A stretch of DNA of 27,033 nt from Dentipellis sp. KUC8613 (Eukaryota > Basidiomycota > Agaricomycetes > Russulales > Hericiaceae): the NCBI GenBank assembly GCA_002286715.1, contig NSJX01000047.1, positions 124,960 through 151,992 of the forward strand, written 5' to 3'. Position numbers and translations under genes: made by a program. Shown here one piece after another: positions 1 through 27,033 of the stretch (positions within the stretch are counted from its first letter, which is position 1; every line of letters begins with the position of its first letter). Under the pieces are notes generated by a model, which saw only the letters and a list, made by a program, of their open reading frames with translations, was not told the DNA's origin and made no database searches.

Positions 1-1131
1 GTAGCCCAGCTCAAGCGTAAAAATGCTCCTGCTACTCGGAGTTTTAACTGTAGAGGCAGCCACTGCAGCACGGGCGCGGGCGCGTCATCTGAAGGAGACA
101 CCAGTTAGTGGAAGTCAGCCACAGGCAATGGACGTACAAGGGTATTACAAGCTGGTCACGACCTGTCGACAGTTGTCATTTGAACGCAACCTACCCGCGA
201 GGCTATAAAAGATTTTGGGGATGTTACAAGCCGGAGCAAGATCGTGCTTGGTCGCGATGACCATACAACAGAGTCGCGAGCGAGTTGCGATCCCTCGCGA
301 TCCCTCGGAATCTTCCGCACGGCTTGCAATCGGTGCAGGGGGCCGAAATCTATAACAAGCCGGCGCGGCTTTTTGTGATGTTCTGTCCCGCTCTTCAAAC
401 TCGCTACGACTCCCATCAGAGTCAGCCAAATATTGTCATTTCAGCCCTTTATGCTACAGTGGATTGTCTCTTATTCCTCTGTATCCTTCAGTCCAACCTT
501 TTGCGCCCCACTGCGGTGTCTGTACGCACTGTAACACTCCTCTCGATCCTCGGACTTTGGCTCCAAACGCGGACAAGGCATTCGTGAATACCTTCTTCCC
601 GGAACAGTAATTTGGGACTTTACTCATACCCGGAACAGGATGAAAGAGCTTCTGTAGATATCTCGTTGCCAGGTCGGCTCTTCGCACTGATGAGCTGTGC
701 GGGCTGCGACAGTCCTCTCCCCACGTCGGGAGTTTACAGCAATCCCCAGCCTTGTTGTCCGCCAACGGTCAGCGTCTCCATCCTAATTCGCCTATATCGC
801 TGCTCATTAGGTGATGCTTGTATTTTGGAATGCCCTCGGATCTTTCCCTCAAAGGATTTCTTTTTCGATCCTCAACTAGGCCTTGTGCATGCTCGTATCC
901 ATGAGTCCATGACCAGATCCCCAATTCCGAAGGCCTTTTTCGCTTTTTTTTCAGCCCGAATCTGCATGGCTACTTGGACTTTATTGTTACCTCGAGCCTT
1001 GTCCTCAATTTGTTCGCATTCCTTTCCTAGCGTCCAGCGTTGTTCATCCCCCTTACCCACTCGACTACTTAAGAACATCTCCTGCGTGCTAGGTGAGCCC
1101 ACAACCACACATGTCTCACACCTCCCTTACG
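1..1131 (+). promoter_or_regulatory. Upstream region of A1
   Basis: No gene seen. From about 381 it matches the A2 upstream region. Near the gene is a block conserved in all four complete A promoters (GCCTTGTCCTCAATTTGTTC followed by CCTTTCCTAGCGTCC, about 999-1040). A TATA-like TACTTAAG lies at 1066-1073, 66 bp before the ATG, followed by GCGTGCTAGGTGAGC. Bases 1-380 are not matched by other modules; they hold a TATAAAA at 212-218 and a 10-bp tandem CGATCCCTCG at 288-307. The GTTTGG element present before A2 and A3 is not found here. Confidence 0.6.
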
Positions 1132-2312
1132 ATGTACTCATCCAGTCGCACAAACCCTCGTCAGCCGTATTCTTGGGCAGGAGCAGCCAACCAGGTCTCC
1201 GGCTCCTCCTCGCACGCCGCAGCCCCGCCGGCGACAACGTACAACCAAACAGGTGCCACGCAGACGGGGTATCCGTATGAAAGACGCTATGCTCCTGTAG
1301 CAGCCCACACTGCGAGCATTTCTGATGAGATCAAGTAAGTGTCTGGCAGTGTCCCTCATGATATTCAACCATACTGACGTATCTCCTCAGTCATCAGCAT
1401 GGAACTCCCTTCCAGGCTCCTGGAAACCCTACGCTGCACCCGTCGTACGATCCTCATCGTGATCAGTAAGCCATCCTCTCGACCCTCTTCCAAAATGATG
1501 AACTGACTGGCGACATCGAAGGTTCACTGCTGCTTTAGACAGCGCATTTCCTCATTTGTATACCCCGCAGATTGGCCACACTGCTTCACTTACTGGAGGA
1601 TCTGCATACCAAGGGTATACACCAGCAAACTTAGCGACTAATTTTCCTCACTCGAGCTATAGCGAACTTGTGAACTATGCCGGTGACTATCGCCCAGCCG
1701 GCAAGACATCTGGCACCGCACAGGCGGCCGTTACACCTGGTGGACATGCCGCGCCGTTGAGCACGCACCACGATCATACGAATGAACATCGTGCGAGTAT
1801 CGCTGAGCCCTCTGCCAAAGGCCAGAAACGTAAGAGTCGCAAAGGCGCGACTGCTGCGCCTGTTGCTCCGCAGGGTGAACCGCTCGACGGCGAATCTAAC
1901 GAGGAACGCGCGAGGAAGAACAAGAAAGCACGGCAGCAGCGCGACTATAGAGCGAGGGACAAAGGAATCGTGGACGAGCTCGAAGGCATCCTTCCGGATG
2001 GATACAAGACAAATGATCCCCGGGCGATCCGCAAGAAGGTTGCTCGCGGTGAGTGTATGTTTCAAGCCCTTGCATTTTTGTAGCTGAACTCGAGGATTCT
2101 CAGGTGTCGAATATATCAAAGACTTGACCGAGAAGAACTCCAGGCTGGAGAATGAAGTCGAGAGACATAAGACCATGCTTCGGACCGCCCAAAATCAATA
2201 TGATCATCTGTACAGCCAGTACAACTTAATGCGTAACGAGAACCAAAAGCTTCGAACGAACATAAATTTCCTAGAGGAAATGGTCGGGGATTTAGGGTCC
2301 GGTCAGTCGTAG
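1132..2312 (+). CDS. A1: bHLH-leucine-zipper-like putative transcription factor
   Basis: Four exons: 1132-1334, 1391-1465, 1522-2048, 2104-2312, giving 337 aa. All introns are GT-AG and 55-56 nt. The start was chosen because the ATG at 1132 aligns with the starts of A2, A3 and A4; an in-frame ATG at 1111 has no counterpart. Residues 1-190 are polar and low in charge, with a block NFPHSSYSELVNYAGDYRP shared by all copies. Residues about 195-239 are Lys/Arg-rich, residues about 236-251 form helix 1 (ending DELEGILP), 252-262 the loop, and 262-276 helix 2 (RKKVARGVEYIKDL). A coiled coil with heptad positions I5/L8, N12/L15, V19, L26, L36, L50, L57 (numbered from the last exon) follows. The last intron cuts helix 2 in phase 1. 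The predicted role is nuclear DNA binding as a dimer. The family assignment rests on the helix-loop-helix pattern; the basic region is atypical (Gln for the E-box Glu). Confidence 0.85.
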
Positions 2313-2442
2313 GCATAAGTTTGTATATCGCTGCAAGACAGGATAATCTGATTAGGCTGTTTGAATGCGCATTGGGTAGAGAGAGTAGTATTTAATGAAT
2401 GTCATTACGTTTTCAACGTAGATATGAATGGAAGAGACCAAA

Positions 2443-2951
2443 TTAATGACCTCTCACATCCCGCCTGTGGACAAAACTGTTCCTCCTCAAGCGAGAATAG
2501 AATTTCGCGCGGTCCAAGAAATTGCGCCGTATCTTCACTGCATCCTCTTTGCTATAGCCCCAGTCCATCGCCGTCTGCACCATGCTCGGTGTCTCCTTCT
2601 TCAGCTCTTCATCTATTTCATCTGAAAGGGCATCCAGCCTATCCATGTACTGCTTGCGCAGAGGTTCATATTCATCTATTGTCATGTGACCACTGTTGAA
2701 GAATTGCTTGTTGACCGCCCTGAACTCTGCGAGGACAGCGAAATGCTCCTGGCGCACTTTCTCGAGATAAGATTCCGACCATGTCGTCCTGGGCGCATTC
2801 TGAGTTGACTGGCGACCTGCTACCCATGTGATGTTGTATGATGAGGTTATCGGTACAGATGCGCGCCCAGAATACGAGACTCACCTTCAAGCCGAGAAGG
2901 TTGGCCGGTCGATGTGGCATGGTGCGGGCCGGGAACATTGTGCGAGGACAT
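2443..2951 (-). CDS. B1: small charged helical protein paired with A1
   Basis: Two exons on the minus strand: 2951-2885 (22 codons plus one base) and 2819-2443 (acceptor could instead be at 2816), giving 146 or 147 aa. The intron is GT-AG, phase 1. The ATG at 2951 aligns with the starts of B2, B3 and B4. The second exon encodes TTWSESYLEKVRQEHFAVLA, a helical segment, then a charged helix around DALSDEIDEELKKETP, a conserved AMDWGYSKEDAVKI segment, and an Arg-rich tail ending HRRDVRGH. No signal peptide or membrane segment is visible, and I recognise no known domain. The gene is convergent with A1; stop codons are 130 bp apart, so the 3' UTRs are likely to overlap. A TATAAA box lies 130 bp upstream. 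Function is unknown; the fixed pairing suggests a partner or modulator of family A. Confidence 0.8.
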
Positions 2952-4289
2952 AATGAGCCGCAAGGCTGTTGGTAATGTTGACGAGCAATACAATCGACAG
3001 GGAGCGTACTCTTCTCACCTGTATCACTGTTTCTGCGTAGACAACTAATGAAAATTGAACTTGAACGAGAGCCGTCGTTGTTTATAGGCGCGACGCCGCT
3101 GTCCTACCTGACGACGGAATCAAGCCATAAGACAATACTCACCTACGTCTCCACGAGCATACAATACAGACCTACGTCTCCGTGATCAAGCAATGTTGTG
3201 GTCCAGCGTGAAGAGGCGCAATAGTTCCACGACTGCGCCATCCAGCGGTTACACAATACACGGCCAGCGCACCTTGACTTATCTGCAAGACAATAAACAA
3301 GCATGACGTATGACGGAGCAACGATCACTGTGGATCCTCATGTTAGAGATCTTCACGGAAAGAACGTCTTTGGCTCATACGGCTAACGGCGACGGAGTGA
3401 GGTGTCGAATTGAATGAGTCGGGCCTATCGTCCTTTGTTTGGCAACACCCTCCAAACCAAACAATTTCCTAAACGAGACTGGCACTACCGGCGCCTCTGT
3501 CCTGCTCTTCAAACCAATTCGCTACGACTCCCATCACAGTCGGCCAAACATTGTCATGTCTATAAGCTACAGTGGATTGTCTCTTATTTTTCTGTGTCCC
3601 TCAAATCTACCTTTTGCACGCCACTGCAGTGTCTGCATCATATGCACTGTAATACTCCTCAGGCTCTCGATCCTCGGACTTTGGCTCTAAACGCGGACAA
3701 GGTATTCACTTTCTTCCCGGAACAGTCATTTGGGAGTTGACTCATACCCGGCACATGATAAACGAACTTCTGTAGATTTTCCCGTCGCCACTGCGCCAGA
3801 TCGGCTCTTCGCACTGCATGAGCTGTGCGGGCGGCGACAGTGACTCCCTCTCCTGCATCCTCCCACGTCGGGAGTTCACAGCAATCCCCAGCCTCGTTAT
3901 CTGCCAACGGTCAGCGTCTGCACAGCGTCTGCATCTAATCCGCATATATCGCTACTCATGAGGTGATGCTTATATTTTGGAATGCCCTCGGATCTTTCCC
4001 TCAAAGAATTTCCTTTTCAATCTTCAACTAGGCCTTGTATATGCTCGTACGTGCCGAATACAACATCATGACCAGATCCCCAATTCCGAAAGCCTTGTTC
4101 GCTTTCTTTCAGCCTGATTCTGCACGGCTACTCGGACTTCGTTGCTGCCTCGAGTCTTGTTCTCAATCTGTTCGAATTCCTTTCCTAGCGTCCGGCCTTG
4201 TTCATCTTTGTTGCTCGTTCAACTACTTAATAACATCTCCTGCGTGCTAGGTGAGCCAATAACCGCATACTTCCTACACCTCCCCTACG
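2952..4289. promoter_or_regulatory. Divergent B1/A2 control region
   Basis: From the B1 side: TATAAA on the minus strand at 3081-3086, a CCGTCGTCA-like block near 3110, AGACAATA at 3130-3137, TTACACAAT at 3249-3257 and GCAAGACAATA at 3285-3295. Toward A2: the bipartite GTTTGG-N14-CCAAAC element at 3437-3474, then CCTGCTCTTC and CGCTACGAC, the conserved CCTTTCCTAGCGTCC block near 4180 and a TACTTAAT box at 4224-4231. No separate gene is seen. Confidence 0.65.
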
Positions 4290-5469
4290 ATGTACTCATC
4301 CAGTCGTGCAACCCCTCGTCAGTCGTGGGCAGGAGCGGCCAACCAGGTCTCCGGCTCCTCCTCGCACGCCGCAGCCCCGCCGGCGACTACGTTCAGCCAA
4401 GCGGGTGCCACGCAAGCGGGTTACCCGAAAGAAAGGAGCTATCCTCTCGCAGCAGCCTACACTGGGAGCAATTCTTACGAGATCAAGTAAGTGTCTGGCA
4501 GCGTTCCTCATGATGTTCAACTATACTGACGTCACCGTATCTCTTCAGTCATCAGCACGGAACTTCGTTCCAAGCTCCTGGAAACCCCACGCTGCATCCG
4601 TCGTACGATCCTCATCGTGATCAGTGAGCTTTCTACTCAGTCGTCTCTCTAATGGCAACCTGACTGGCAACATCAAAGGTTCACTGCTGCTTTAGAAAGC
4701 GCATTTCCTCATTTGCATACTCCACAGATCGGCGGCACTGCGCCAGTCATTGGAGGATCTGCGTACCAAGGGTATACACCAGCGAACTTAGCGACTAACT
4801 TTCCTTACTCGAGCTACAGCGAACTTGCGAATTATGCCGGTGACTATCACCCTGCCGACAACGCGCCAGGGGCTGCACAGGCGGCCGTTGTACCTGGTAA
4901 ATTTGCCGCGCCATCGAGCATGCACCACGAGCATACGAATGAACGTCGCACGAGCATAGCTGAGCCCTCTGCCAGAGGCCAGAAACGTAAGAGTCGCAAA
5001 GGCGCCACTGCTGCGCCTGTTACTCCGCAGGGCGAATCGCTTGGGGGCGAGTCTAACGAGGAACGCGCGAGGAAGAACAAGAAAGCACGGCAGCAGCGCG
5101 ACTATAGAGCGAGGGACAAAGGAATCGTGGACGAGCTCGAAGACATCCTTCCGGATGGATACAAGACGAATGATCCCCGGGCGATCCGCAAGAAGGTTGC
5201 TCGCGGTGAGTATATGCTTCAAGCTCTTGTATTGTTGTAGCTGAACTCGAGGATTCTCAGGTGTCGAATATATTCAAGACTTGACCGAAAAGAACTCCAG
5301 GCTGGAGGCTAAAGTCGAGAGATCTGAGACCATGCTTCAAACTGCCCAAAATCAATATGATCGTCTGTATAGCAAGTACACTTTGACGCGTAACGAGAAC
5401 CAGAAGCTTCGACTGAGCATGAATCTCCTAGAGGGAAGGGTCAGGGATTTAGAGTCTGGTCAGTTGTAG
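4290..5469 (+). CDS. A2: bHLH-leucine-zipper-like putative transcription factor
   Basis: Four exons: 4290-4486, 4549-4623, 4679-5205, 5261-5469, giving 335 aa. Exon positions, phases and most lengths match A1, of which it is a recent duplicate. The 76 residues before the last intron (basic region, helix 1, loop, start of helix 2) differ from A1 at only 4 positions. The 69 residues of the last exon (rest of helix 2 and zipper) differ at 19. These include Glu to Lys at zipper position 18 and Lys to Glu at position 23. The conserved N-terminal block NFPYSSYSELANYAGDY is present. A predicted nuclear, dimerising DNA-binding protein. The ATG at 4290 is the first in its 5' leader and lies 66 bp downstream of a TACTTAAT TATA-like box. 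Confidence 0.85.
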
Positions 5470-5591
5470 ACACAAGTCTGTCTATCGTCGCATAATCCGG
5501 TAAGACTGTTTTGCCGGGCATTGGGTGGGGGAAGTAGTATTTTATGAATGTCAATATGTTTTCAACGTAGATATGAATGGCACAGACGAAA

Positions 5592-6097
5592 TTAATGACC
5601 TCCCGCATCCCGCCTGTGAAGAAAGCTGTTCCTCCTCAAGCGAGAATAGAATTTCTCCCGATCCAAAAAATTGCGCCATATCTTCTCTGCATCCCCTTCG
5701 CTATAGCCCCAGTCCATCGCCCTCTGCACCATGCCTGGTGTCTCCTTCTTCAGCTCTTCATCTATTTCATCTGACAGGGCATCCAGCCTATCCATGTACT
5801 GCTCGCGCAGAGGTTCATATTCAGATCTAGAGATGTGACCACTGAAGAATTGCTTCTTGACCGCCCTGAACTCTGCGAGGACAGCGAGATGCTCCTGGCG
5901 CACTTTCTCGAGATAAGGTTCCGACCATGTTGTCTTGGGCGGATTCTGAGTTGACTGGTGACCTGCTACCCATGTGATGTTGCATCATGAGATGATCGGT
6001 ACAAATGGGCGCCCAGAATACAAGACTCGCCTTCAAGCCGAGAGGGTTGGCCCGCCGAGGCAGCATGGTGCGAGCCGGAAACATTGTGCGAGGACAT
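5592..6097 (-). CDS. B2: small charged helical protein paired with A2
   Basis: Two exons on the minus strand: 6097-6031 and 5965-5592, giving 146 aa. It is close to B1 throughout, including EPYLEKVRQEHLAVLAEFRA, the DEIDEELKKETP helix, AMDWGYS and the C-terminal HRRDAGGH. The expected donor reads G|GCGAGT where B1 has G|GTGAGT, so the single intron is either a GC-AG intron or inefficiently spliced; the reading frame is otherwise intact. The gene is convergent with A2 (122 bp between stops). A TATAAA box lies about 125 bp upstream of the start. Function is unknown and no recognised domain is present. Confidence 0.75.
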
Positions 6098-7243: not shown

Positions 7244-8359
7244 ATGCGCCCATCCAGTCGCACAAACCGCCACCAGCCGTACCCTTGGGCGGGAGCGCCT
7301 GACCAGGTCTCTGGCTCTTCCGCACACACCGCAGCCCCGCCGGCCACTGTTTACAGTCAGAATGGTGCAACGCATGCAGGATACCCGCCCGATCAGAGCT
7401 TTTCTTCCGCACATGGTGCCTCTTTCCAGCATTCGGGAAACTCTACGCTTCATCCCTACTACGATCCTCATCCTGACCAGTAAGCTGCCTTCGCAACTCT
7501 TACTACCTTAGTTTGGTATGCTGACTGGCGATGCGAAGGTTTAATGCTACTTTGGAAAGTGCATTCCCTCATCTGCATACTCCGCAGATCGGCAGCACTG
7601 CCCCCGCCACCGGAGGATCTACATACCAAGGGTATGCGCCAGGAAGCTTAGGCACTAACTTTCCTTATTCAAGCTATAGCGAACTTGCCAACTATGCAGG
7701 CGACTATCGTCAAGCTGGCAAGGCATCCGGGGCCGCACATGCGGCTGTTCCGTCTGAAGGAATCGCTCTGGCTTCGAATTTGCACAACAACTCTATGAGT
7801 GGTCGTCGTGCAAGTGTCACCGAGCCCAGCGCCACGAAGGGCGAGAAGCGTAAGAGCCGCAAAAGCACGACGGACGCACTTGCTGTTCAGCAGGGCGAGT
7901 CCCGCGGCGAAGAGCCCGACGAGGAACGCGCCAGGAAGAAGAAGAAAGCCATGCAGCAGCGCTTTTACAGGGAAAGCTATAGCAACGTTGTGAAGAGGCT
8001 CGATGCGGTGCTTCCGGATGACTACAAGGTGAACGAAGCTCGGCTCACTCGCAAGACTGTTGCTCGCGGTAAGTATCAATTTCGAGCTCTCGCATTGTCA
8101 CACCCGGACTGATCGATTCGAAGGTGTCGACTTTATCGAAGACCTTATAGAAGAGAAAAAGCAGTTGAAGAATGAACTGGAGACGCACAAGGTCTCACTC
8201 GAAACTAGCAGACAAGAATGCCGTTCCGTAAACGCACAACTGCGCTTAGCCAAACAGGAGATACAACAACTCAGGGCAGAACGGCAGGAGCTTCGAAGTG
8301 CTCTACATACTTCGCAGGTCGGAGTAAAGTATCGAGAGTCCGGCGGGAGATGGGCGTAG
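7244..8359 (+). CDS. A3: bHLH-leucine-zipper-like putative transcription factor
   Basis: Three exons: 7244-7479, 7539-8068, 8124-8359, giving 333 aa. It lacks the first intron of A1 and A2; the corresponding coding stretch is continuous. The Pro/Ser-rich N-terminus is followed by the conserved NFPYSSYSELANYAGDYRQ block, a basic stretch (KKKKAMQQRFYR), helix 1 ending RLDAVLPDD, helix 2 (RKTVARGVDFIEDL) and a zipper with d positions L8, L15, H22, V36, L50, L57. Zipper positions 18 and 23 are Glu and Lys, as in A1. It is clearly diverged from A1 and A2 along its whole length, so it is an older paralogue. A TATTTAAG box lies 73 bp upstream of the ATG. Confidence 0.83.
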
Positions 8360-8987: not shown

Positions 8988-9278
8988 GATGAGCCGGAGA
9001 GCTGTCGGAAGTCTTCGTGGGCGACTGTTGCAAGTCACAATGCCCGTAGCCGGCACTTATAGGTGCCATGCTGGCATGCTGCCCTGCATGACTGCCACGG
9101 CTACGAGCCACAAGACAATAATGACCTACGTTTCTATGGCCAACAATGCTGTTGTCCAACTCGTACACAATTAAAGACCCGCAGGCAACATCGAATGCTG
9201 CAAGACAATAAGCCAGGGTGACAGTGAATGTCGATATGTTAGAAGTTTCTGTTCAAGTGCATTGAGATTGCATTGACA

Positions 9279-9776
9279 TCAATGCCCTCTGACGTCCCGC
9301 CTGTATAGAAAGTTATTCATACTCGAGTTATAACTGAAAATGCCCTGATCCCTTAAATCGTGCTGCTTCTTCTCCGCTTCTTCTTGGGTATAGCCCCAGT
9401 CGATTGCTATTTGCACCAAGCTCGGTGCCTCCTTCTTCTTCTCCTCTATCAGCTGCTCCCATACTGCGTCCATCTCGGCTGTGAGACGATCGTACAGAGC
9501 CTGGTATTCGAATACCGAGATGAGACCACTGAAGTACTGGTCATCGACAGCGTCGCGCTCCGACAGGATAGCGAGGTGTTCCACGCTCAGTCTTTCACAA
9601 TAAGGATCGGACCACGTTGTCCTAGACGGACTTTGGGTTGGCCGCTGATCTATGATTCGCGAGATGTTGCGTGACGGGAACAGACGTGTGCCTATAACAG
9701 GATACTCACCTTTAGGCCTCACGGTTTGGTTGGTCTGGGCAACAAAATATCCACCGCGAATATCGCGTAAAGCCAT
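9279..9776 (-). CDS. B4: unpaired small charged helical protein
   Basis: Two exons on the minus strand: 9776-9710 and 9649-9279, giving 145 aa. The 60-nt intron is a multiple of three and has no stop, so an unspliced transcript would read through as 165 aa. Exon 1 encodes MALRDIRGGYFVAQTNQTVR, clearly related to B3. Exon 2 has SRTTWSDPYCERLSVEHLAI, YFSGLISVFEYQAL, a Glu/Lys helix, AIDWGYTQEEAEKK and LYRRDVRGH. Its stop lies only 291 bp from the B3 start and there is no A gene next to it. A TATAAA box is at 9901-9906 and a GCAAGACAA motif lies just beyond it. Confidence 0.77.
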   Translation of the reverse strand: MALRDIRGGYFVAQTNQTVRPKGEYPVIGTRLFPSRNISRIIDQRPTQSPSRTTWSDPYCERLSVEHLAILSERDAVDDQYFSGLISVFEYQALYDRLTAEMDAVWEQLIEEKKKEAPSLVQIAIDWGYTQEEAEKKQHDLRDQGIFSYNSSMNNFLYRRDVRGH

Positions 9777-10262
9777 GATTGGACAGAGGGCTGCCGGGAG
9801 CGTGAGCCAGCAGACAGACGAACAAGTTTCAAATCCCTCGTACCTGTGTCACTTCGTCTTCGTGGGCGACTGATGCAAGTCCCGATGCTCGCAGCCGTCA
9901 TTTATATGCATGAGGTTGCTCTCCACAATGAGGGCTACGAGACGCAAGACAAAACAGACCTACGTTGCTACGTTCACGCAATGCCATTGTACAGCCAGCA
10001 GCGCACCGTACGGCAGCTTACACAATTGAGAGGCAAAGGACCCTAAGCGCTGCAAGACAATAAGCCCGCATGAAAGAATCACAACAAATTCTAGTCATGA
10101 TTAGTGGTTACACAAAAAGACAACGTAAGTACTAGAGCTCACCTAGGAAGACCGTAACTTCAGATGCCTGCATTTCGAGACGAGCTCATACTGTTTTGAA
10201 CACTGGGCAGGAGAGGGGGTGATATAGATAGTAATTTGTTTTCAAACCTAGATACACTGAGA
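9777..10262. promoter_or_regulatory. B4 promoter and shared 3' region of B5
   Basis: Contains the B4 TATAAA (minus) at 9901-9906, GCAAGACAAAA at 9944-9954, a TTACACAATTG near 10019 and GCAAGACAATA at 10052-10062. Bases 10203-10262 resemble the conserved A/B 3' intergenic block (a GGGTRG-like run and GTTTTCAA), although no A gene remains on the left of B5. Confidence 0.6.
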
Positions 10263-10768
10263 TCAATGTCCTCTGGGATCGCGCCTGTACGTAAACCCAC
10301 TCCTGCACGAACGGACACTGAAGTCCTGCTGCTTCATGAGATTGAGCCACAACTTCTTTGCCTCTTCTTCATTAGCGGCACAGCCCCAATCCATCGCCGT
10401 CTGCTCGAAACTCGGGGTGTCCTTTCTCAACTCTTCATCCAATTCATCCGAGAGAGTGCTGATCTTAGCCATGTAATATTTGAACAAGCCATGATATTGG
10501 TCTGAAGGCATGGCACCACTGAAGTATTGCTTGTTGACTGCTTCGAACTCGGCAGCGACGGCGCGGTCTTGCTGACGCAATTGCTCGCAACGAGGTTCTG
10601 ACCAGGTTGTCCTGGAGCTGGAGGGTTTCTGAAACACTGGTGACCTGCTATCCATGAGATATGCTACATGATGAGGTAAATGGTACAGATGTGCGTTGTG
10701 AATACGAGACTCACCTTCAAATTGAATGGCTTGACCGGTCGACGCAGCATGATGCGGGCCAGGAACAT
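10263..10768 (-). CDS. B5: unpaired B gene with altered start
   Basis: The main exon, 10628 or 10636 down to 10263, is intact and encodes SRTTWSEPRCEQL, a KQYFSGAMPSDQYH segment, a DELDEELRKDTPSFEQTAMD helix, WGCAANEEEAKK and a tail ending TYRRDPRGH. The start used by B1 and B2 is destroyed: the aligned bases read ATT TAA instead of ATG TCC. A possible rescue is the ATG at 10768, out of frame with the ancestral exon 1, giving exon 1 10768-10715 joined in phase 0 to a good TTTCAG acceptor at 10628 (139 aa). So the gene either shifted start and acceptor or is a young pseudogene. A TATAAA box is retained at 10910-10915. Confidence 0.55.
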
Positions 10769-11398
10769 TGTACGATTAAATGATGAGTCGGAGGCCTGTT
10801 GGTAGTGTGAACGAGCGATCGAATCTGCAAGGGGTGTAATAACCTTACCTGCAAATCTTACTTTGCCTACCTGGACGACTAATGAAAGTCAGAATGCCAA
10901 CATTCGCCGTTTATAGTAGGTGCGACGCGACGCACGTACTGCCCTATATGACGACGGGAGCAAGCTAAGATGCAAGACTTGCCAACATTTCCGTAGCCAA
11001 GCAGTGTCGCGGCCCATCCTGTAGCGCAACGGCTCCGTCTGGCGAGTTACACGATCAAGAGTCCATGAACGACCAGAGCACTGCAAGACAATAAGTCAGT
11101 ATCATATGACGGGCTACGACAGATGGTCAATGGTAACCGAAGTAGGAGAGCTTCGAATTCGACGTATGAAGTAGACTGTGGGCGGGGTTTGCTGAGAGAA
11201 CAGTAGAGTGGTAGCTCTGTAGAACGCGTGAGGTCAATGGTTACACAATAACTTGAGGCGTCGTACTGAAGCTGACCTGGCAAGGTAATAAGCTCTGGTC
11301 CGCGCATCTTATCAATCACAGATCAGCATGTACCAGCCATTGGGTAGGGAAAGGAGTGATTTGAATAACAATGTGTTCTCAATACAAGTACACTGAGA
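10769..11398. promoter_or_regulatory. B5 promoter region and decayed spacer
   Basis: TATAAA (minus) at 10910-10915, a degenerate TGCAAGACTTG at 10970, TTACACGATC near 11047, GCAAGACAATA at 11083-11093 and TTACACAATAAC near 11231. The arrangement copies the B1 and B2 upstream regions. No gene is seen. Confidence 0.55.
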
Positions 11399-11479
11399 TC
11401 GATGCCCTTCAAGGTCATGCCTGTACAAGAAGCCGTTCCTGCTCGAGCGGAAATTGAGGTCCTCCTGTTTCAAGACACA
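11399..11479 (-). pseudogene. 3' remnant of a B gene
   Basis: Twenty-seven codons on the minus strand align with the end of B5, including RSSRNGFLYRHDLEGH against RSCRSGFTYRRDPRGH. The stop codon is replaced by CGA, and homology ends abruptly near 11480. The flank at 11336-11398 also resembles the shared A/B 3' intergenic block next to the other B stops (a CATTGGGTRG-like start followed by a GTTTTCAA-type stretch). This marks a deleted B copy. Confidence 0.7.
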
Positions 11480-14029: not shown

Positions 14030-15266
14030 TCACAACATCCAAGGCCGACGCAGCTTCCACGCCTCGCCCTCTGGAACACTCGGCGGCCCCGCGGGACTGT
14101 TATCTCTCGAGACCCAGCCCGAGCTGGCCGACACCGACGATGACGGGACGGACTCGACATAGCTCGACGCGCGCGAGGACGCGTACGCGTACGCGTCCGT
14201 CTCGAGCGACGACGGCCGGAGCGTGTACAGCTTCGCGCCGTGCGCGTTCTCCCAATGGTCCACGCCGTCGAGCTCGTCGGGCTCCTCGACCTTCACGCGC
14301 ACCGCGGCGTCGTGCGCGCTGCGCCACATCGCGCTCTCGCGGTCGCGCGCGAGCCGCCTCTCGCGGTCCAGGATGTACGCGCTCACGACGGGCGTCCACG
14401 CGATGGTTGTCGGCTTCGCAACAGGCGTCTGTGAGAGCGGCGCAAACGGTTCCAGTGCCGGTGCCGGTGTCGATAGCGAGTCTATTTTCACGACGGCCGG
14501 CTTGGGTATCGGTGCTGGTTCGGACATCGACATTGATGTCGATGTCGACGTTGACTCTGGTGACAGTGCGGGTTCTGTCTTCGTGCGGCGCACACGAGCT
14601 GTCGGGCCCGACACGAACGTGTACTCTCTCGCTGCCGGTGCTGGGTCCTCGGAGACAGATGTCCTAGCCCGCTTCTTCGGGTTCTCGGCATCCCATGGGG
14701 TCGGCACGACCGCGGTGCGCATCTCGTACCACTTCTTGGTGTGGAACGGTCTGTAGCCGTGCTGTTCCTTGCGGTGGCGCGTCCGGGTGCCCTCGTCCGT
14801 GAAGAGCGTGTCGCAGTTGGGGCAGGTGAGACGCTCGCCCGAGCTGTGCGGGTAGCAAGAGGCGACAGACAATAAGTATCAAGGCGGGCAAGACAATAGA
14901 GGGTGGGCCACGCACTGGCGACGTTCGTGCGTCTTGAGGTTGGAGATGTTCTTGAAGGTCTTGCGGCACCAACGGCAAGAGAAGGGCCTGCAGACGGGAA
15001 CGGCGATGGTGAGCATGGTGGCGTGTGGCCCGTCCGAGCGCTGGGCTACGCGGGGAGTAGGAACGTACCTCAGCTTGGGGTATGTGTGCACGTCGCGCAT
15101 GTGGCGTCCTAGGTCGGTCCTCCGCTGGATGTGCTTGCCACACTCTTCGCATTCGTAGTACTGTCCGTGCTCCTGGCCAGGGGGCGCGGGGTCAGTCCCG
15201 CCACACCGATGCGCAAAAGAGCGTATTTACCGTGAGCACGGATCGGGTATGGGCAATGGGCGCCAT
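14030..15266 (-). CDS. Three-finger C2H2 zinc-finger protein, putative transcription factor
   Basis: Four exons on the minus strand: 15266-15231, 15172-15069, 14987-14916, 14843-14030, giving 341 aa. The splice choices rebuild three regular C2H2 fingers: C20-x2-C23-x12-H36-x4-H41, C51-x2-C54-x12-H67-x3-H71 and C78-x2-C81-x12-H94-x4-H99. The join at intron 3 creates the classic linker-like HSGERL between fingers 2 and 3. The remaining 240 residues are Ser/Thr/Pro/Glu-rich, with a basic KKRAR patch that could be a nuclear localisation signal and an ST/SM repeat (STSTSTSMSMSEP). A nuclear DNA-binding role is expected; the target is unknown. Intron 3 (14844-14915) contains two ACAATA-type motifs identical or close to the element repeated near the B genes. 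The C-terminus after the fingers is less certain, as a further intron cannot be excluded. Confidence 0.82.
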
Positions 15267-18264: not shown

Positions 18265-18745
18265 ATGGCCACTTCTACAACGGCGTCGCAGACCGAGCTC
18301 AAGCAGAACCAGGTGCCCATTGCATGGAGGGATCAATGCTCTGCGTAAGTCTATCCTATATATGACCGGAGTGCAGGTGACGCTAACTCACTCGGTGTCG
18401 GAAACTATGTTCTTCGTTCAATTGCACGTTTCGCGTCTTGTATTGCCCTGAGGACAGTCTTCTCATCCCTCTCAACGTCTGCCGGAAAGACAAGATGTAC
18501 TTGCCTTGGGAGTGCGAGAATGAGAGACACGCGTATGAGAAGTGCGTGTTAGTTTTCTTTTCTATCCGGCTGTTATTGATGAGCTGTCTGCCTCTTGTAC
18601 AGGTGCCAATACGATGAGTTCGTCACTATAACTGACTATGCCGGGATGTGAAATGCTGACATTCTTGTTTTGCAGTTACCTCAGGCGAATGAAGATCCTG
18701 GCGAAGCAGAAGCAGCAGGAGGCGGACGCTGCAGCCCCCGCTTAG
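18265..18745 (+). CDS. NDUFB7: NADH dehydrogenase (complex I) B18 subunit, NDUFB7-like
   Basis: Four exons: 18265-18344, 18458-18541, 18603-18617, 18676-18745, giving 82 aa. The protein has the twin CX9C pattern of the family: C25 to C35 (CSALLIPLNVC), then CENERHAYEKC, followed by QYDDYLRRMKILAKQKQQ. These cysteines form a disulfide-bonded helical hairpin in the intermembrane space by family knowledge, and the protein is an accessory subunit of respiratory complex I. Exon 3 is a 15-nt microexon encoding part of CQYDD; it is needed to reach the conserved RRMK tail in frame. The start ATG has a good CAACC context. Fungal homologues are similarly short. Confidence 0.9.
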
Positions 18746-19635: not shown

Positions 19636-20251
19636 ATGCCTCCGTTCGACACACACCCTGGGCCGAGTGCGCCGCAGAACACTCAGTACGTCGGGCCAAT
19701 GGATGGTGAGTACAAATCTCTCGTTGGTGACTTTCCGCCAGCGAACTAAACGGTGGGGCAACAGGAACTACTAGTATAGGGCAGCGACGCAGAGATGCTT
19801 CGTCTGGCGCAGGTATGACATCTACAACCAACGTTTATCTCATAATACGTTGTAATGACCAGCTTTAGCAGAGCAGTCGGGGCAGAATCAGCGCCGACCG
19901 GTCCGGTCGGACTATCGCTGCCATGTGCTGTTGCTGGAGCACGATGCCGTACTGGCGGAAATGCGCCAGTTGACTCAACAGTTTTGCAATGGCCTCATCG
20001 GTTTCTACGAACATCGGGAACTAGACGCGCGCTGTTTAGCTAAAGAACGTGCTATCAGACAAGCAATCCAGGAAGAAATGGACGCTGAGCCGCAGACTAG
20101 GAAGGAACGTATCAAAGACTGGGGTTTCACGGGGGACGACGTCACGCGGATAGATCGCGATCTTTTCAACCAGAATCTTTCAGGGGCGTATAATTTAGGG
20201 AAGAGCACCAGATATTTTCCATATAGGCGGCGACTTGCAGGGAAGAACTGA
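19636..20251 (+). CDS. B6: unpaired small charged helical protein (right-cluster type)
   Basis: Three exons: 19636-19705, 19765-19812, 19869-20251, giving 166 aa; all junctions are phase 1 and GT-AG. Exon 1 encodes MPPFDTHPGPSAPQNTQYVG, related to exon 1 of B8 and B9. Exon 2 is a short 48-nt exon rich in Ser, Thr and Arg. Exon 3 opens with a basic segment (QNQRRPVRSDYRCH), then helices with LEHDAVLAEMRQLTQQF, RAIRQAIQEEMDAEPQ, a KDWGFTGDDVTRID segment and the tail YFPYRRRLAGKN. It shares with the left B proteins the spacing of the helices, the DWG motif and the YRR tail. No A gene adjoins it. A GATAAA box lies at 19518-19523 behind a conserved CCGTCGTCACG block. Confidence 0.78.
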
Positions 20252-20332
20252 GTATAAGTCGTGATGCAGCTGAAACTATGCGTTACATTCGTACATGTCG
20301 TCTCATTTTGTGCTCTATTACTACCCTCTACT

Positions 20333-20829
20333 ATGAACCAGGCAACACCTACAGAGAATGCTTCGACCAGCACAGGTAGGATATCTATACCCTACGCCAA
20401 TCTCTTGACATGTTGTGACCAATCGCTTCAGGCCAGCAATCAGACCAGCGCCAGCGCCGACGAGTCAGGTCAGACTATCGATATCGTTGCCACTTGTTGG
20501 AGCTGGAGCGCGAGGCACTCCTCGCAGAGCTTAAGAACATAATACAGCAGTATTCCGACGGTGTCATTAGTGTCCGGGAACTCCGGGAACGGAATGCGCG
20601 CTGCCACGCTGAGCGGCAGGCTGTTTTACAAGCAATAGAAGAGGAATGGGATGCCGAAGAACCGACTACGGCGGAAGTTTTACGAGATTGGGGTATTGAT
20701 TATACGGAAGCGGATGTGAAGAGGATAGATCGCAATTCCTCCAATGAGAACTATCGGCGTGCTTGCAACTATAGGAGGAGTATTGAATACTTTCCATACA
20801 CTGGGCGACGGCTCGGGGGGAGATCGTGA
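20333..20829 (+). CDS. B7: 5'-truncated B copy, near-duplicate of B9
   Basis: Two exons: 20333-20375 and 20432-20829, giving 146 aa. From about 20351 onward it is almost identical to B9, but exon 1 and the promoter found at B9 are missing; homology breaks just before the TACAGAGAATGC sequence and a new ATG at 20333 would supply the start. It contains small in-frame indels relative to B9 (6 nt near the start of exon 2 and 3 nt near the end). The protein has LELEREALLAELKNIIQQYS, EEEWDAEEPTTAEVLRDWGI and RRSIEYFPYTGRRLGGRS. It starts only 81 bp after the B6 stop, with no TATA box of the family, so expression is doubtful and it may be a decaying copy. Confidence 0.55.
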
Positions 20830-20850
20830 TATAAGTAGCTGAAAATGCGC
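20351..20850 (+). repeat. Dispersed near-identical repeat carrying B7 (copy of 25374-25862)
   Basis: About 490 bp, nearly identical to 25374-25862 and covering B exon 2 to just past the stop codon. Differences are a handful of substitutions plus in-frame 6-nt and 3-nt insertions. It indicates very recent duplication or gene conversion between the two B loci. Confidence 0.85.
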
Positions 20851-21826
20851 ATTACGTTCGCACACACCATCAACCCATCGAGTCCGTCCTACTATCGTCC
20901 TCCGTTACTAAAGCGACAAAAATCGTAGGGTTTTAATCTGTCAAAACACCGCGACTTCGCCCATCCGTGGAAGAAGGTGATCACCGATGCCTCGTACGAT
21001 TGGAGTCTGAGATCTGAGCGCTGAAGTGCCAGTGGCCGACTACTTCGAACCACGACGGCGGTCGTAGCGAAGAGCAGAACGTTGGACGTAAGTAAGTGAT
21101 AGTGCTTAACCTTTGTTTCAAACGCTGTTGCCAAACAAACTAAAAAGTACTTCTGACCGTTTGCACAGTCGTTCAGCCTCTTACTATCGGCAGACTGTCG
21201 TTGACACGAAATTGGCCCCTGGAAAACATCGTGCGGGCCCTACACATCTATCCATTTCTCGGATTGCAGTAGGAGCTTGTCATGAGTAGAGTGCAGGGCT
21301 AGAAGTTATTGTCCTGCCAAGTGAGCTTCAGTACGTCGTACGATGCCTTGTTGTTGAACCGCTGAACCCGCACGTTCTCTAGAGCCGGCGTGATCTCGTC
21401 GAAACGTAAATTGTTGTTGAAATATCGCCGACGAAGCGACGCTGGTCAACATCTTCACAGCCTATCCACGGACCCTCCGAGCCTCAAATGTCGATGGCGT
21501 CATTTCAGTTCCGTCATAATCATTTGCTGCGATAGAATCACTTTTCAACCAGCGACGTTCTAATTGTCTCGCAGTGGATCAGTCTTGCTAATTGTCTTGC
21601 TGTGATGCTCAATTCTGCGCATCGAAGGGGATAAGATAAGCAGGGGTCGTGGAAAAGGGGGTCAGTATTGTCTTGCGTAGTTTGATACCGTTGTCACGTA
21701 GGGCCGATAAATGGCGACTCCTGGTGGTGGATGAAATCTCTCAAGTTGCCCACGGAACGAAAGCAGCACAGGTAAAGTGGAATTTCACTGGCACAATTGA
21801 ATGCTTACCTATAGTTTATGAACAGG
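20830..21826. promoter_or_regulatory. B7-B8 spacer with B8 promoter and a remnant A-side element
   Basis: On the minus strand, 21111-21136 holds a GTTTGG-N14 element whose second half is degenerate (AACAAAG side), with a TCTGCTCTTCGCTACGAC match at 21055-21072; no A gene lies to its left, so an A copy was probably lost. For B8: ATTGTCTCGC at 21563, ATTGTCTTGC at 21591, TATTGTCTTGC at 21666-21676, a GATACCGTTGTCACG block and GATAAA at 21706-21711. Confidence 0.6.
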
Positions 21827-22447
21827 ATGCTTCCGTCGAATGCACAGGCTGGATCTAGTCTGCCGCAGAACTTTCAGCGCGTTTTTCCAGAATACGGTGA
21901 GTCTATTTGTCTTGTTGAGAACGTCTCGTCAGTCAGTTGAACGGGCGTAGAATTTACGGTTCAGTGGTCCGAAGATGCTTCGAAAAGTACAGGCATGTTA
22001 ACTCCACCCGATGCCTTCACAATGACTCATTGATGACGAACAGCTCTAGGAGGTCAGTCAAGCCAAGTGCAGTCAAGCGACAATCCACGCCGACGAGTCA
22101 GGTCATCTCGACGCTTCCATGTGCTGTCATTGGAGGGCCGAGCGATAGCAGCAGAGGCAAGCGAAATAACCAGACTGTACACTGATGGTGTCATCGACAT
22201 CTTTGAAATGGCGGAATTAAATGCTCGCTGCATGGCTAAGAGCCGCGCTGTGCAGCAAGCAAGGGAAGAGGAAATGAATGGGGAGGACCCAACCAGGGAG
22301 GAAATCATTGCAGATTGGGGTTATACGGGTGCCGAAGCTGCGCGGGTGGATCGTGAAATTTCCAGGCATGATTTGTCGGCCGTATCCAATGCAGAGAGGA
22401 ACAACAGATACTTCCCGTATAGGCGACGGGTTTCGAGGACCCAGTGA
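21827..22447 (+). CDS. B8: small charged helical protein paired with A4
   Basis: Three exons: 21827-21896, 21951-21992, 22050-22447, giving 169 aa. Exon 1 encodes MLPSNAQAGSSLPQNFQRVF. The donor after exon 2 reads G|GCATGT, a GC donor rather than GT; the frame on both sides fits B9 and B6 only if it is used. Exon 3 carries a basic segment (DNPRRRVRSSRRFH), LEGRAIAAEASEITRLYTDG, EEEMNGEDPTREEI, ADWGYTGAEAARVDR and a YFPYRRRVSRTQ tail. It is convergent with A4 (111 bp between stop codons). A GATAAA box is at 21706-21711, 116 bp before the ATG, with TATTGTCTTGC at 21666. Confidence 0.75.
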
Positions 22448-22558
22448 ATGTAATCGTGATATTCGTAGTTGTCTTTTGCACTGTGTTCGTACATGTCATC
22501 GTATCATTGTCTATACAGCCATCAGTTGGGAAACGGCATGCACAGACCCTACGTTGCT

Positions 22559-23680
22559 TCATTGGTAATTATGCAATTGACTATCTGATTGCAGATATTG
22601 TACCGTGTTCTCCGATCCTTGCAAATCCTTCCGCGGCAATGATTTCATCCCTTGAGGGGCATTGAATGCGTCCCAAGCAGCATTGCGCTCATGGACTGCA
22701 TCATCGCGCTCTTTAAGAGCCCGATGAAGGGATGTCTCGCTCCAACTCAGTTTCACTTCCAAGTCCTTGATCTCTTCTAGTAAGTCTCCAATGTACCTGA
22801 CACCTGAGAACCCCTTAAAACGTGATTCGACATAGGGATCAGGAAAGATACATACTTTGGTCAACGGTCTGGCGAGTCAGCCCAGGCCGAACTGCCACCG
22901 TCTTGTATTTATCAGGAAGTACGTTTTCGAGCTTCTTCACAGCTTCTCTATCCTCCGCCCTATACTTGCGCTGTAAATCAGCTTTCCTCATCTTCCTCAC
23001 ACGTTCCTCTTCAGACTCGTTACCGAGCGGGCCTCCTTGTGCACCATCAGATGCATTGGTCACGCCTTGGCGATTCTTGCGCTTCTTACCCTTCGCGGAC
23101 TCGGCGGCACTCGCACGACGATTATTCATCAAGTTATGAGGCGCGCTCGGCGGCACGTCGTGTTCAACAGATGAAGCACCCGCCTGTGCGGTCCCAGATA
23201 CGCTTCCGGCTAGTTTGTGATCACCAGCGTAATTCGCGAGTTCGCTGTAGTTTGAATGAGGAAAGTTGGCGCCTAGGTGCCCTGGCGCAAATCCTTCGTA
23301 TGGAGATCCTCCAGTGATGGAGCCGGTGCTCCCGGTCTGTGGAGTACGAAGATAGGGAAATGTGCTTTCTAGTGTAGCACTGGACCTTTGTATCGGTACT
23401 TAGTATACCAATCTAGGACAGGGCTTGCGAAAGCTACTTACCGGTCAGGATCAGGATCGTAAGATGAGTGGAGCGTAGAATTTCCCGGATTCTGGAAGGG
23501 GGCAGCACGTGCCGACGGATAGGTCCCATCGGTCGGGTATCCTGCATGCGTCGCACTGGTCCGAGTAACATGTGCGGTCGCTGGCGGGGCTGTGGCGTGC
23601 GATGAGGACCCGGAGACCTGGCCGGGCGCTCCTGTCCAGGGATATGTCTGGTAGCGATTTGGGCGACTGGAGGAGTGCAT
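22559..23680 (-). CDS. A4: bHLH-leucine-zipper-like putative transcription factor
   Basis: Three exons on the minus strand: 23680-23442, 23385-22856, 22803-22559, giving 337 aa. Architecture matches A3: no first intron, the last intron in phase 1 inside helix 2. The N-terminus reads MHSSSRPNRYQTYPWTGAPG and the conserved block is NFPHSNYSELANYAGDH. The basic region includes RKMRKADLQRKYR, helix 1 ends KKLENVLPDKYK, the loop is slightly longer than in A1 (TVAVRPGLTR), and helix 2 reads RQTVDQSVRYIGDLLEE. The helix-2 Gly-Val junction residue is Ser here. Zipper positions 18 and 23 are Lys and Glu, the A2 state. The coiled coil is shorter, with Ala/Asn-rich residues from about position 40. The start is 65 bp downstream of a TACTTAAG box (minus strand). 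Confidence 0.82.
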
Positions 23681-25233
23681 CGTAGCAAAAGGAAGAGGAG
23701 ATGCGGATGTTGGCTCACCTAGCTTGCCGGAGACGTTCTTAAGTATCTGAATGGGAGAGCGGGGTGAACAACGCCGGACACCAGGAAAGGAATCCGAGCA
23801 AATTGAGGACAAGGCCCGCAGCCTGGTAGAGATGAAGGTCACCATGCAGAATCGAGTTGAAAGCGAACTCACAAGAATGTCGGAATTTGGAATCTGGTCA
23901 TGGCGCCGTTTCCAACCACATACAGTGTTAACGAGCACAGGTCGTGGATGGGAAAGGAAATCCTTTGAGGGAAGCAATCGGGGATACGATCGTAACAGAA
24001 TGAAATTAGCCGGTGTTAGCAGGAGAGACTGCGGACAGCTGGGAAGGGAACAAGGTTGGGACTTATTTGAAAGAACGAAAGAGAACCCTAACGAGGCGCA
24101 CAACAGCCACGATGGGGGGAACCAGCCTAACTGCGACATAGAGCAGATGAACTTCCGGGCTCTATGTCGGGCTATGCAAAAATCAGGTTACTATTTTGGG
24201 ATGAAAGTGAATGCCTTGTCCACGATCAGAGACCAAGTTTGACCATCGAGAGGAATGTTGCAGTACGTCCAGACATTGCAGATGTGCGAGAGGAGTAAAT
24301 TCGAGATGTATAGACAACAGATGCTGCGTATCGTTACAAAGAGCTGTAGTTCCACGATGAGAACCGCTGTCACTATGTCGCGAAGAGCAGGACAGCCTCG
24401 GACGTAGTGCTTGTTTAGGAAATTGTTTGGTTCAGACGCTGTTGCCAAACAAACTTATCCCGAGCTCAGGCTGTCTTGCAGCCTCACTGGCACCCACGGA
24501 CGATTGTCATTGATGTTGGATATTATTCACCCTTGAGCCACAATAAATCACTGTCTCCTTCTCCACTTCTCGACTCGCAGCAGGAACTCCTAGTGACAGA
24601 AGTTATTGTGAATCCGAGTCGCCAGGTCACAGGTGAGCTTCGGTACGGTGCCTTCAACTTCTTGCTATTGAGCACTGAACCCGTCTGCTCTCTAGAGCTG
24701 CCAATATGTCGTCTAGAAAATTAGGTCGGCATCTACCCTAGGAGTATCGCGCTGAAGAAGCGATGGTGGTCGGCTTCACGAAGTACTCACGAGTCCGAGC
24801 CTCAAATGTGGCCAGATTACGAGTCATGATTCACACTCAGTTTGTGTATGCAATTTATGTTGCGAGCGTGTCATGCCTGGATAGCATCACGTATGTCTGT
24901 GTTGTTTTGGAGCTCAGTTCTGTCACCCGTTGTGATATGATGACCCTTCTATTAGCGATGTTCTAATTGTCTCGCAGTGTATTAGCCTTCGCTGATTGTC
25001 TTGCTGCGGTGCTCAATTTCGCACATCGAAGCAGATATGATAAGCAGGGGTCGTGGAAGCGTAGGTCAGTATTGTCTTGCGTAGCTGGATACCGTCGTCA
25101 CGTAGGGTCGATAAAAGGAGGCTCCTGGCGGTGGACAAAATCTCTCTCAAGTTGCTCATGGAACGAAAGCAGCACAGGTAAAGTGTAACTGTCACCGGCA
25201 CAATCGAATGCTTACATATAGTTCACGAGCAGG
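23681..25233. promoter_or_regulatory. Divergent A4/B9 control region
   Basis: A4 side (minus strand): TACTTAAG at 23738-23745, the conserved CCTTGTCCTCAATTTGCTCG block near 23800, and the bipartite element at 24413-24450 (GTTTAGGAAATTGTTTGG, 14 bases, CCAAAC). B9 side (plus strand): ATTGTCTCGC at 24966, ATTGTCTTGC at 24995, TATTGTCTTGC at 25070-25080, a GATACCGTCGTCACG block and GATAAAA at 25110-25116, 118 bp before the ATG. The B9 side from about 24945 is very similar to the B8 promoter. No extra gene is seen. Confidence 0.65.
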
Positions 25234-25838
25234 ATGCTTCCATCCGACGCATGGATCGGATCCAGCGCGCCGCAGAACGTTCAACACATCGGGTTGTCGA
25301 ATGGTGAGTGCCGGTCTTCAAGTCGATCAGTGTTAGCCAGTCAGCTGAATGTCGGGGTTGTAGCGTCTACAGAGAATGCTTCGACCAGTACAGGTAGGAT
25401 ATCTATACCCTACGCCAATCTCTTGACATGCTGTGACCAATCGCTTCAGGCCAGCAATCAGACCAGCGCCAGCGCCGACAAGTCAGGTCAGACTATCGTT
25501 GCCACTTGTTGGAGCTGGAGCGCGAGGCACTCCTCACAGAGCTTAAGAACATAATACAGCAGTATTCCGACGGTGTCATTAGTGTCCGGGAACTCCGGGA
25601 ACGGAATGCGCGCTGCCACGCTGAGCGGCAGGCTGTTTTACAAGCAATAGAAGAGGAATGGGATGCCGAAGAACCGACTACGGCGGAAGTTTTACAAGAT
25701 TGGGGTATTGATTATACGGAAGAGGATGTGAAGAGGATAGATCGCAATTCCTCCAATGAGAACTATCGGCGTGCTTACAACTACAGGAGGGGTATTGAAT
25801 ACTTTCCGTACAGGCGACGGCTCGGAGGAAGATCGTGA
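25234..25838 (+). CDS. B9: small charged helical protein paired with A5
   Basis: Three exons: 25234-25303, 25364-25393, 25450-25838, giving 162 aa, all GT-AG and phase 1. Exon 1 encodes MLPSDAWIGSSAPQNVQHIG; exon 2 is only 30 nt. Exon 3 starts with a basic run (QRQRRQVRSDYRCH), then LELEREALLTELKNIIQQYS, the acidic EEEWDAEEPTTAEVLQDWGI segment and a YFPYRRRLGGRS tail. The 60-nt first intron has no stop in frame. The gene is a mosaic: its promoter and exon 1 resemble B8, its body is almost identical to B7. It is convergent with A5 (128 bp between stops). Confidence 0.8.
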
Positions 25839-25862
25839 TATAGGTAGCTGAAATTGTGTTCA
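25374..25862 (+). repeat. Dispersed near-identical repeat carrying B9 (copy of 20351-20850)
   Basis: Direct-orientation partner of the repeat at B7. The identity begins inside exon 2 and does not include exon 1 or the promoter. Confidence 0.85.
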
Positions 25863-25966
25863 TATTCACGTACATGTCATCGTTGCTTCCCGCGATCGTT
25901 CTCCCTTGGCAAACAGCACACCTCGTAGGATCATAACTTGTTGAGAGACTTCTTTATAGATTGTAT

Positions 25967-27033
25967 CTACTTGCCGGACTGAAGGGACTCTATTATGTTT
26001 TGCAATTCGGAGATATCAGTTAGCATCTTTGACTCCTTGCATCTAAGTAGCGTAACTTCGTGAGCCATGGCGTCATGACCCTTGACTGCCCCATGATAAA
26101 TTTCAAGGGCTTGCTGAAGTGCTACCTTAGTATCACTCAGTTTCATCTTTAAGACCCTGTTCTCTTCGAGTAGGTCTCTGATACATTCAATGCCTAAGCA
26201 CTCATTAGCCCATCTGCATTGATGCGTTGATTTTGGAAATCTACTTACCGCGAGTTATCGTCTTGCGATTCCGTCGACTTTCGTACACCTTGTATCCATC
26301 AGGAAGTATGTCTTCGAGCTCTTTTATAGCTCCTTTGTCCATCTCTCTATACCCGCGCTGTTGATCTGCTTTCTTCTTCTTCCTCGCGAGTTCCTCGCGA
26401 GACTCGTTGCCTAATTCATCTTTCGCTGCAGCGCTAGCAGATACATCGGTCGCGCTTTTGCGACTCTTGCGCTTCTGACTTTTCGCAAAAGGTTCGGCGA
26501 CACTCGCACGACGATTACTCGTAAGATTACGCTCCGTATAGGATGCCAGTGGTGCGGCATGTCCCATTCCAGTAGATGGAGCAGCCCCGGATGCATTGCC
26601 AGCTGGGCGATATTTACCGGCGTAATTGACTAGTTCGCTGTAACTCGAGTGAGGAAAATGAGAGCTCGGGTTCGCCAGTGCAAGCCCCTGGGTTGTAGAC
26701 CCCGCAATGAAGGAGGTGCTGCCGTTCTGCGGGGTATGTAGATAAGGAAATGCATTTTCTAAAGCAGCACTGAACCTTCAGAATTAGTAGTCAGTATGAC
26801 AGTCAAGGATCAGAATCGTGCAAATGCAGCTCACTGGTCAGGATGAGGATCGTAAAATGGGTGGAGCGTAGAATGTCCCGGATTCTGGAAGGAGGTTCCA
26901 TGCGCAGACGGATAGATCTCGTCGGTCGGATATCCTGTCTGCGTTGCACTGGTCCGACTTCGTGAGGTCACCGGCGGGGGTGCGACATGCGAGGCGGCGC
27001 CAGAGACCTGATCAGGCGAGCCTGTCCAGGGAT
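25967..27033 (-). CDS. A5: bHLH-leucine-zipper-like putative transcription factor, 5' end outside the window
   Basis: Visible exons on the minus strand: 27033-26835 (incomplete; roughly the first 15 codons lie beyond the edge, judged from A4), 26775-26249 and 26193-25967. The continuous first visible exon shows that, like A3 and A4, it lacks the first intron of A1 and A2. It contains HFPHSSYSELVNYAGKYRPA, a basic run (RKKKKADQQRGYR), helix 1 ending KELEDILPDGYK, helix 2 (RKTITRGIECIRDLLEE) and a zipper with L8, L15, L19 and L26, ending ELQNIIESLQSGK. Zipper positions 18 and 23 are both Lys, unlike any other copy. Confidence 0.8.

What the first reader, a model, noticed from the sequence alone, without database searches (positions are those of the whole stretch)
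381..27033. Multi-copy two-gene system: bHLH-zipper protein (A) tail to tail with a small helical protein (B)
Five A genes and nine B genes lie in one 27-kb window. All five A genes have a B gene facing them 109-130 bp away. The pair structure is kept through both recent (A1/B1, A2/B2) and old (A3/B3, A4/B8, A5/B9) duplications and in both orientations, so selection seems to keep the two together. Two unlike partner genes in repeated, diverging pairs recall the HD1/HD2 modules of basidiomycete mating loci, but no homeodomain, pheromone or receptor gene is seen. I know of no described system with this pair. A role in self/non-self or dimer-specific regulation is inference.
Basis: partly seen in the sequence, partly recalled or inferred. 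Interest (0 to 1): 0.88.

Follow-up and report, generated by a model that had tools for sequence, protein, structure and literature searches.

The report
Repeated bHLH-zipper/partner gene pairs in fungus
A wood-decay fungus carries one stretch of DNA with many copies of an undescribed two-gene pair, a probable DNA-binding zipper protein and a small helical partner, in which the DNA-binding part is shared among copies while the zipper and its partner differ from copy to copy, a pattern that suggests a recognition system but is not yet tested by experiment.

Summary
The window holds five A genes (four complete, one cut by a gap) and nine B genes plus a B relic; nine more A and ten more B lie elsewhere on the same 208-kb contig, and no confident one on any other contig. 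All 14 A found have a convergent B, stop codons 100-169 bp apart. A is a predicted bHLH-zipper protein without the usual E-box contacts; B is a helical hairpin of no known family. Among five close copies the bHLH half of A and the intron behind it are 95-99% and 91-96% identical; identity falls near the start of the zipper exon. Against Dentipellis fragilis one A shows the reverse: zipper 88%, N-terminus 64%, and the neighbouring B there is by far the closest relative (83%) of its B. Zipper plus B thus behave as a matched cassette, the DNA-binding half is shared by gene conversion. This mirrors the logic of HD1/HD2 mating modules, but the homeodomain and receptor genes found are on other contigs. 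Matched A-B recognition is supported by evolution; self/non-self recognition is inferred and untested. Relatives were found only in Dentipellis.

The parts
1132..2312 (+). A1: bHLH-zipper-like gene, exons 1132-1334, 1391-1465, 1522-2048, 2104-2312 (337 aa)
2104..2312 (+). A1 exon 4: helix 2 and zipper, the divergent exon
2443..2951 (-). B1: helical partner gene, convergent with A1 (146 aa)
   Evidence: public P0017 differs only by an added residue at the splice
4290..5469 (+). A2 (335 aa)
5592..6097 (-). B2, convergent with A2 (GC-AG intron)
7244..8359 (+). A3 (333 aa), identical to public P0001
8469..8987 (-). B3, convergent with A3
9279..9776 (-). B4, solitary
10263..10768 (-). B5, solitary; usual start codon lost, exon 2 open; upper limit approximate
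11402..11476 (-). B relic (25-residue C-terminal piece)
19636..20251 (+). B6, solitary, three exons
20333..20829 (+). B7, solitary, recent copy of B9 (dS 0.10)
21827..22447 (+). B8, convergent with A4
22559..23680 (-). A4 (337 aa)
25234..25838 (+). B9, convergent with A5
25967..27033 (-). A5, 5' end cut by an N run
3285..3296 (+). Element GCAAGACAATAA (ATTGTCTTG in the B sense) upstream of B1; exact nine-letter copies also upstream of B2-B5, B8, B9

Best explanation
Each A/B pair is a matched recognition module. A is a DNA-binding bHLH-zipper-like protein; B is a small helical-hairpin protein that recognises the zipper of its own A (or takes the place of a second A in the coiled coil) and so sets whether A is active. 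The zipper exon, the short spacer and B form the specificity cassette, held together by the tail-to-tail arrangement; the DNA-binding half is kept alike among copies by gene conversion. The likeliest use is recognition between different A/B types that meet when nuclei share a cell (self/non-self), separate from the genome's HD and STE3 genes. Shown: anatomy, pairing, the split pattern of divergence, co-divergence, conservation of one matched pair across species. Inferred: physical A-B binding, nuclear location, DNA binding, any role in self/non-self.
For: 14 of 14 A copies found have a convergent B 100-169 bp away; none of them is solitary while at least five B are. A1 vs A56k: dS 0.03 over the bHLH half, 1.53 over helix 2-zipper; intron 3 is 95% identical, then exon 4 60%, spacer 56%, B exon 2 70%, B intron 49%. 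The best single break lies near the start of exon 4 (codon about -2 to 21) in 10 of 10 comparisons of five copies (Fisher p 7e-5 to 2e-28). A3 vs public P0004: N-terminus 95%, bHLH 100%, zipper 41%. D. fragilis g6740 vs A168k: N-terminus 64%, bHLH 75%, zipper 88% against 20-31% for the other zippers; the neighbour g6739 is the closest relative of B167k (partner of A168k), 84% by BLASTP, 83% over 125 columns, next best 39%, support 100/100. Zipper distance tracks partner-B distance (10 core pairs, r 0.88; given the bHLH half r 0.70, p 0.0002), the bHLH half adds nothing there (r 0.07, p 0.29). Zippers keep hydrophobic a/d positions in one heptad register in 16 of 18. Models.
Against: No binding, expression or haplotype data. 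Zipper dN/dS stays below 1 in close pairs (0.44-0.65); e/g positions vary no more than outer positions. Over all 14 pairs the bHLH half (r 0.46, p 0.0006) and the N-terminus (r 0.51, p 0.0002) keep a correlation with B after the zipper is taken out, and the N-terminus does in nine core pairs (r 0.39, p 0.02). The other D. fragilis A with a readable zipper, g2786, does not show the reversal: best zipper match 52% (A7k), best N-terminus 61% and bHLH 69% (A12k). Conservation of a cassette across species may be plain orthology. A1 and A2 with B1 and B2 are close throughout (zipper 84%, B exon 2 92% at DNA level). A fails Pfam's HLH model. The N-terminal tree does not reject A168k with g6740 (p 0.26).
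Confidence: 0.5

Rival explanations
1. Insulated regulator pairs: each B is the dedicated partner or inhibitor of its own A in an ordinary regulatory circuit. After duplication, zippers and B diverged so that pairs do not cross-react (paralog insulation). No self/non-self recognition is involved.
For: All these diverged pairs lie in one assembly; one pair has a clear one-to-one relative in a second species; no A found is without B, as expected if B restrains A.
Against: Copies with a near-identical DNA-binding half that differ in pairing part suit recognition better than separate circuits (inference).
Confidence: 0.3
2. Neutral birth-and-death of a lineage-specific gene pair, with gene conversion in the 5' half and relaxed drift of the zipper and B.
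For: Pairs are copied as units; one A (94.6 kb of the contig) is 5'-truncated and one B (36.5 kb) has in-frame stops near its end; B5 lost its start.
Against: Spliced frames are open in copies about 30% identical to A1; the zipper core is kept (a/d differ in 34% of comparisons, other classes in 61-65%, five zippers); one zipper is more conserved than its N-terminus across species; no solitary A found.
Confidence: 0.12
3. Toxin-antidote or other selfish pair: A harmful, B the antidote, spread by drive.
For: A not found without B, B sometimes alone.
Against: A looks like a DNA-binding regulator, not a toxin; all confident copies sit on one contig; no drive data.
Confidence: 0.06

Closest known systems
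HD1/HD2 homeodomain modules of the Agaricomycete MAT-A locus
   Same: Two unlike genes per module, several diverged modules at one locus, a variable dimerisation part beside the partner gene and a conserved DNA-binding part (recalled); trans-species types of mating genes and likely N-terminal coiled coils for heterodimerisation are reported in PMC8970355 (passages seen)
   Different: No homeodomain found in A or B; tail-to-tail rather than (recalled) head-to-head; the divergent part is at the C-terminus of A; no DNA-binding domain recognised in B; Homeobox_KN genes lie on other contigs
bHLH-zipper transcription factors (PHO4, MAX, USF, MITF)
   Same: Predicted basic helix, loop, long helix 2 running into a zipper; PHO4 top PDB hit
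   Different: Not reported by Pfam's HLH model; K and Q/A at the positions of the E-box-reading H5 and E9 in 20 of 20, R13 kept; paired with a non-bHLH gene
Basidiomycete somatic incompatibility loci (genes unknown)
   Different: No link to an incompatibility phenotype was tested

Membership tests
HD1/HD2 mating module | homeodomain in at least one partner | tested here: not met
   Homeobox_KN search of the genome rings on C95 and C88 only (other homeodomain models not searched genome-wide); no homeodomain among Pfam matches of 4 A and 5 B (A1 has a below-cut-off match to HALZ, the zipper that follows plant homeodomains)
HD1/HD2 mating module | two unlike genes in repeated, diverged pairs | tested here: met
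   14 of 14 A found have a B
HD1/HD2 mating module | divergent (head-to-head) transcription (recalled) | tested here: not met
   all 14 pairs convergent
Pheromone/receptor (MAT-B) locus | STE3 receptor gene | tested here: not met
   18 STE3 matches, all on C1:2.33-2.35 Mb
bHLH-zipper proteins | helix-loop-helix followed by a zipper | tested here: met
bHLH-zipper proteins | match to Pfam HLH over its cut-off | tested here: not met
bHLH-zipper proteins | E-box contact residues H5, E9, R13 (recalled) | tested here: not met
   only R13 kept in 20 of 20 (ungapped register set by hand, HMMER places a two-residue gap)
Ascomycete-type het genes | HET or NLR domains | tested here: not met
   no such Pfam domain in 4 A and 5 B scanned
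Allorecognition locus | many alleles under balancing selection within a species | not testable with these tools
   only one haplotype was readable
Allorecognition locus | types shared between species | tested here: inconclusive
   one zipper/B type shared with D. fragilis, which orthology also explains
Transposon-borne genes | copies dispersed through the genome | tested here: not met
   all confident hits on contig C114

The most novel reading that the evidence does not exclude
A third, non-mating-type recognition locus in a mushroom-forming fungus, built of bHLH-zipper/helical-partner cassettes in which zipper plus B encode specificity: a molecular candidate for the still unknown basidiomycete somatic (heterokaryon) incompatibility genes.
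Probability: 0.25. Interest if true: 0.95.

Novelty: categorically new. Interest (0 to 1): 0.74.

Why it matters
Basidiomycete somatic incompatibility is described as mechanistically unknown (PMC8229728, passages seen). A region with the evolutionary marks of a specificity locus, on another contig than the HD and STE3 genes, gives a concrete candidate to sequence and test. Independently, it is a natural set of many zipper/partner pairs, some with an almost identical DNA-binding half, useful for learning how coiled-coil specificity evolves. Two protein families without detected relatives outside one genus are described.

Tried and rejected

One search checks all hand-typed B peptides against the contig, corrects these two and repeats the distance tests, identities and tree; the report uses. 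The results changed little (identity of B167k to g6739 from 78 to 83%).

Full report
What is there. Between the left and right groups lie a gene that I take by eye for a C2H2 zinc finger, an ERG4/ERG24-type sterol reductase and NDUFB7 (Pfam). Spliced A3, A165k and A56k equal public proteins of Dentipellis sp. KUC8613 (P0001, P0003, P0005), so the assembly is very probably of that strain (inference; the public contig is 215,026 bp, the held one 207,726).

The wider locus. Genome searches put every confident A and B match on C114, from 7.7 to 169 kb (two weak matches on C88, E 0.06 and 0.12; the tool scores only its best candidates). On the parts that I could read (83,039 bases) there are 14 A copies, one 5'-truncated, and 19 B copies plus the relic. 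All 14 A have a convergent B; stop-to-stop gaps are 100-169 bp. At least five B (B4, B5, B6, B7 and one at 10.6 kb) have no A, and no convincing A remains were found beside them. Public proteins add two further A (P0004, P0010) and five further B (P0021, P0025, P0026, P0028, P0033) on a contig of the public length that I did not find in the held sequence, probably in N stretches (inference).

The key pattern. Among the five closest copies (A1, A2, A56k, A94k, A120k), the bHLH half is 95-99% and intron 3 91-96% identical in 10 of 10 comparisons. The rest of the zipper exon is 54-84%, the spacer 42-80% and B exon 2 66-92%; A1/A2 are the closest throughout. A1 (plus strand, 126 kb) against A56k (minus strand, 57 kb): dS 0.44 in the N-terminus, 0.03 in the bHLH half, 1.53 in helix 2-zipper; B1 against B55k dS 0.68. 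Since the intron is also alike, purifying selection on protein alone does not explain it; ectopic gene conversion that stops near the zipper does (inference). A3 and P0004 repeat this in another branch: 95, 100 and 41%.

Across species one A shows the reverse order. D. fragilis g6740 and A168k share 64% of the N-terminus, 75% of the bHLH half and 88% of the zipper; other zippers share 20-31% with g6740. In trees the zipper pair has 100/100 support with end branches 0 and 0.14, against 0.32 and 0.22 for the N-termini, which do not group (grouping not rejected, p 0.26). I then searched with a four-sequence alignment led by B167k, the partner of A168k, and found g6739, numbered next to g6740 on a contig of the same length: 84% by BLASTP, 83% over 125 columns, next best 39%, support 100/100. 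g5764, numbered next to A gene g5763, is closest to B11k (76%; 97/94), partner of A12k; the start of g5763's helix 2 resembles A12k and A15k alike, while its N-terminus and bHLH half are closest to A37k, so this second case is only suggestive. g2786, the other D. fragilis A with a readable zipper, shows no high conservation (best zipper 52%). Of four annotated D. fragilis A genes, three have a neighbouring B by number and contig length; g2786 has none among the hits.

Co-divergence. For ten core pairs, zipper and B distances correlate at r 0.88, and at 0.70 (p 0.0002) given the bHLH half; the bHLH half adds nothing (0.07, p 0.29), the N-terminus little (0.23, p 0.08). Over all 14 pairs zipper, bHLH half and N-terminus each keep a partial correlation (0.50, 0.46, 0.51) (the first run gave much the same).

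Reading. The tail-to-tail layout puts the zipper exon beside B, so one short block can carry the specificity of both, while the DNA-binding part is exchanged. HD1/HD2 modules do the same with their ends reversed (recalled; N-terminal coiled coils in PMC8970355, passages). The genome has Homeobox_KN genes on C95 and C88 and a STE3 cluster on C1, so this is not a mating locus of the known kinds, though linkage beyond contigs is unknown. A recognition role fits, but paralog insulation fits the present data nearly as well; haplotypes decide.

A side result. CAAGACAATA lies upstream of 13 of 18 B genes (largest count for any ten-letter word in 20 shuffled sets: 3), and its nine-letter core was not seen in 700 bp upstream of 11 A genes. 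On the known sequence of C114, 17 of 20 copies of ATTGTCTTG and 11 of 12 of ATTGTGTAA lie within 1 kb upstream of a B in its sense orientation; 0.63 copies of the first are expected at even base use. The window alone has 23 near-matches against 1.9 expected. Seven B start positions used there are approximate because first exons were not modelled, and the copies share descent, so the counts are not independent. B genes seem to keep their own promoter code even in distant copies.

Noticed in passing
upstream of B1-B5, B8, B9 (e.g. 3285-3296, 9200-9211, 10052-10063, 11083-11094, 21665-21676, 25069-25080): Conserved ATTGT-containing elements (ATTGTCTTG, ATTGTGTAA) in fixed orientation upstream of B genes, including very diverged ones; the first was not seen within 700 bp upstream of 11 A genes.
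   Followed up: partly
L010 8591-10000, L011 1-10000 and L012 1-1392: Runs of 1,410 and 11,392 N flank the window; public A and B proteins not found in the held sequence probably lie in such stretches.
   Followed up: partly
20333-20829 and 25234-25838: B7 and B9 are recent copies (dS 0.10) although only B9 has a partner A.
   Followed up: no
G000:C1:2.328-2.348 Mb and G000:C95:562-571 kb: Several STE3 receptor genes and three homeodomain matches, the probable mating loci of this fungus.
   Followed up: no
public contig of 11,577 bp of Dentipellis sp. KUC8613 (P0027, P0029): A small contig carries B proteins 100% and 86% identical over aligned columns to P0028 of the large contig: possible second haplotype or assembly duplicate.
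   Followed up: no
14030-15200: By-eye C2H2 zinc-finger gene; the one ORF piece tested (14030-14722) gave no Pfam match.
   Followed up: no
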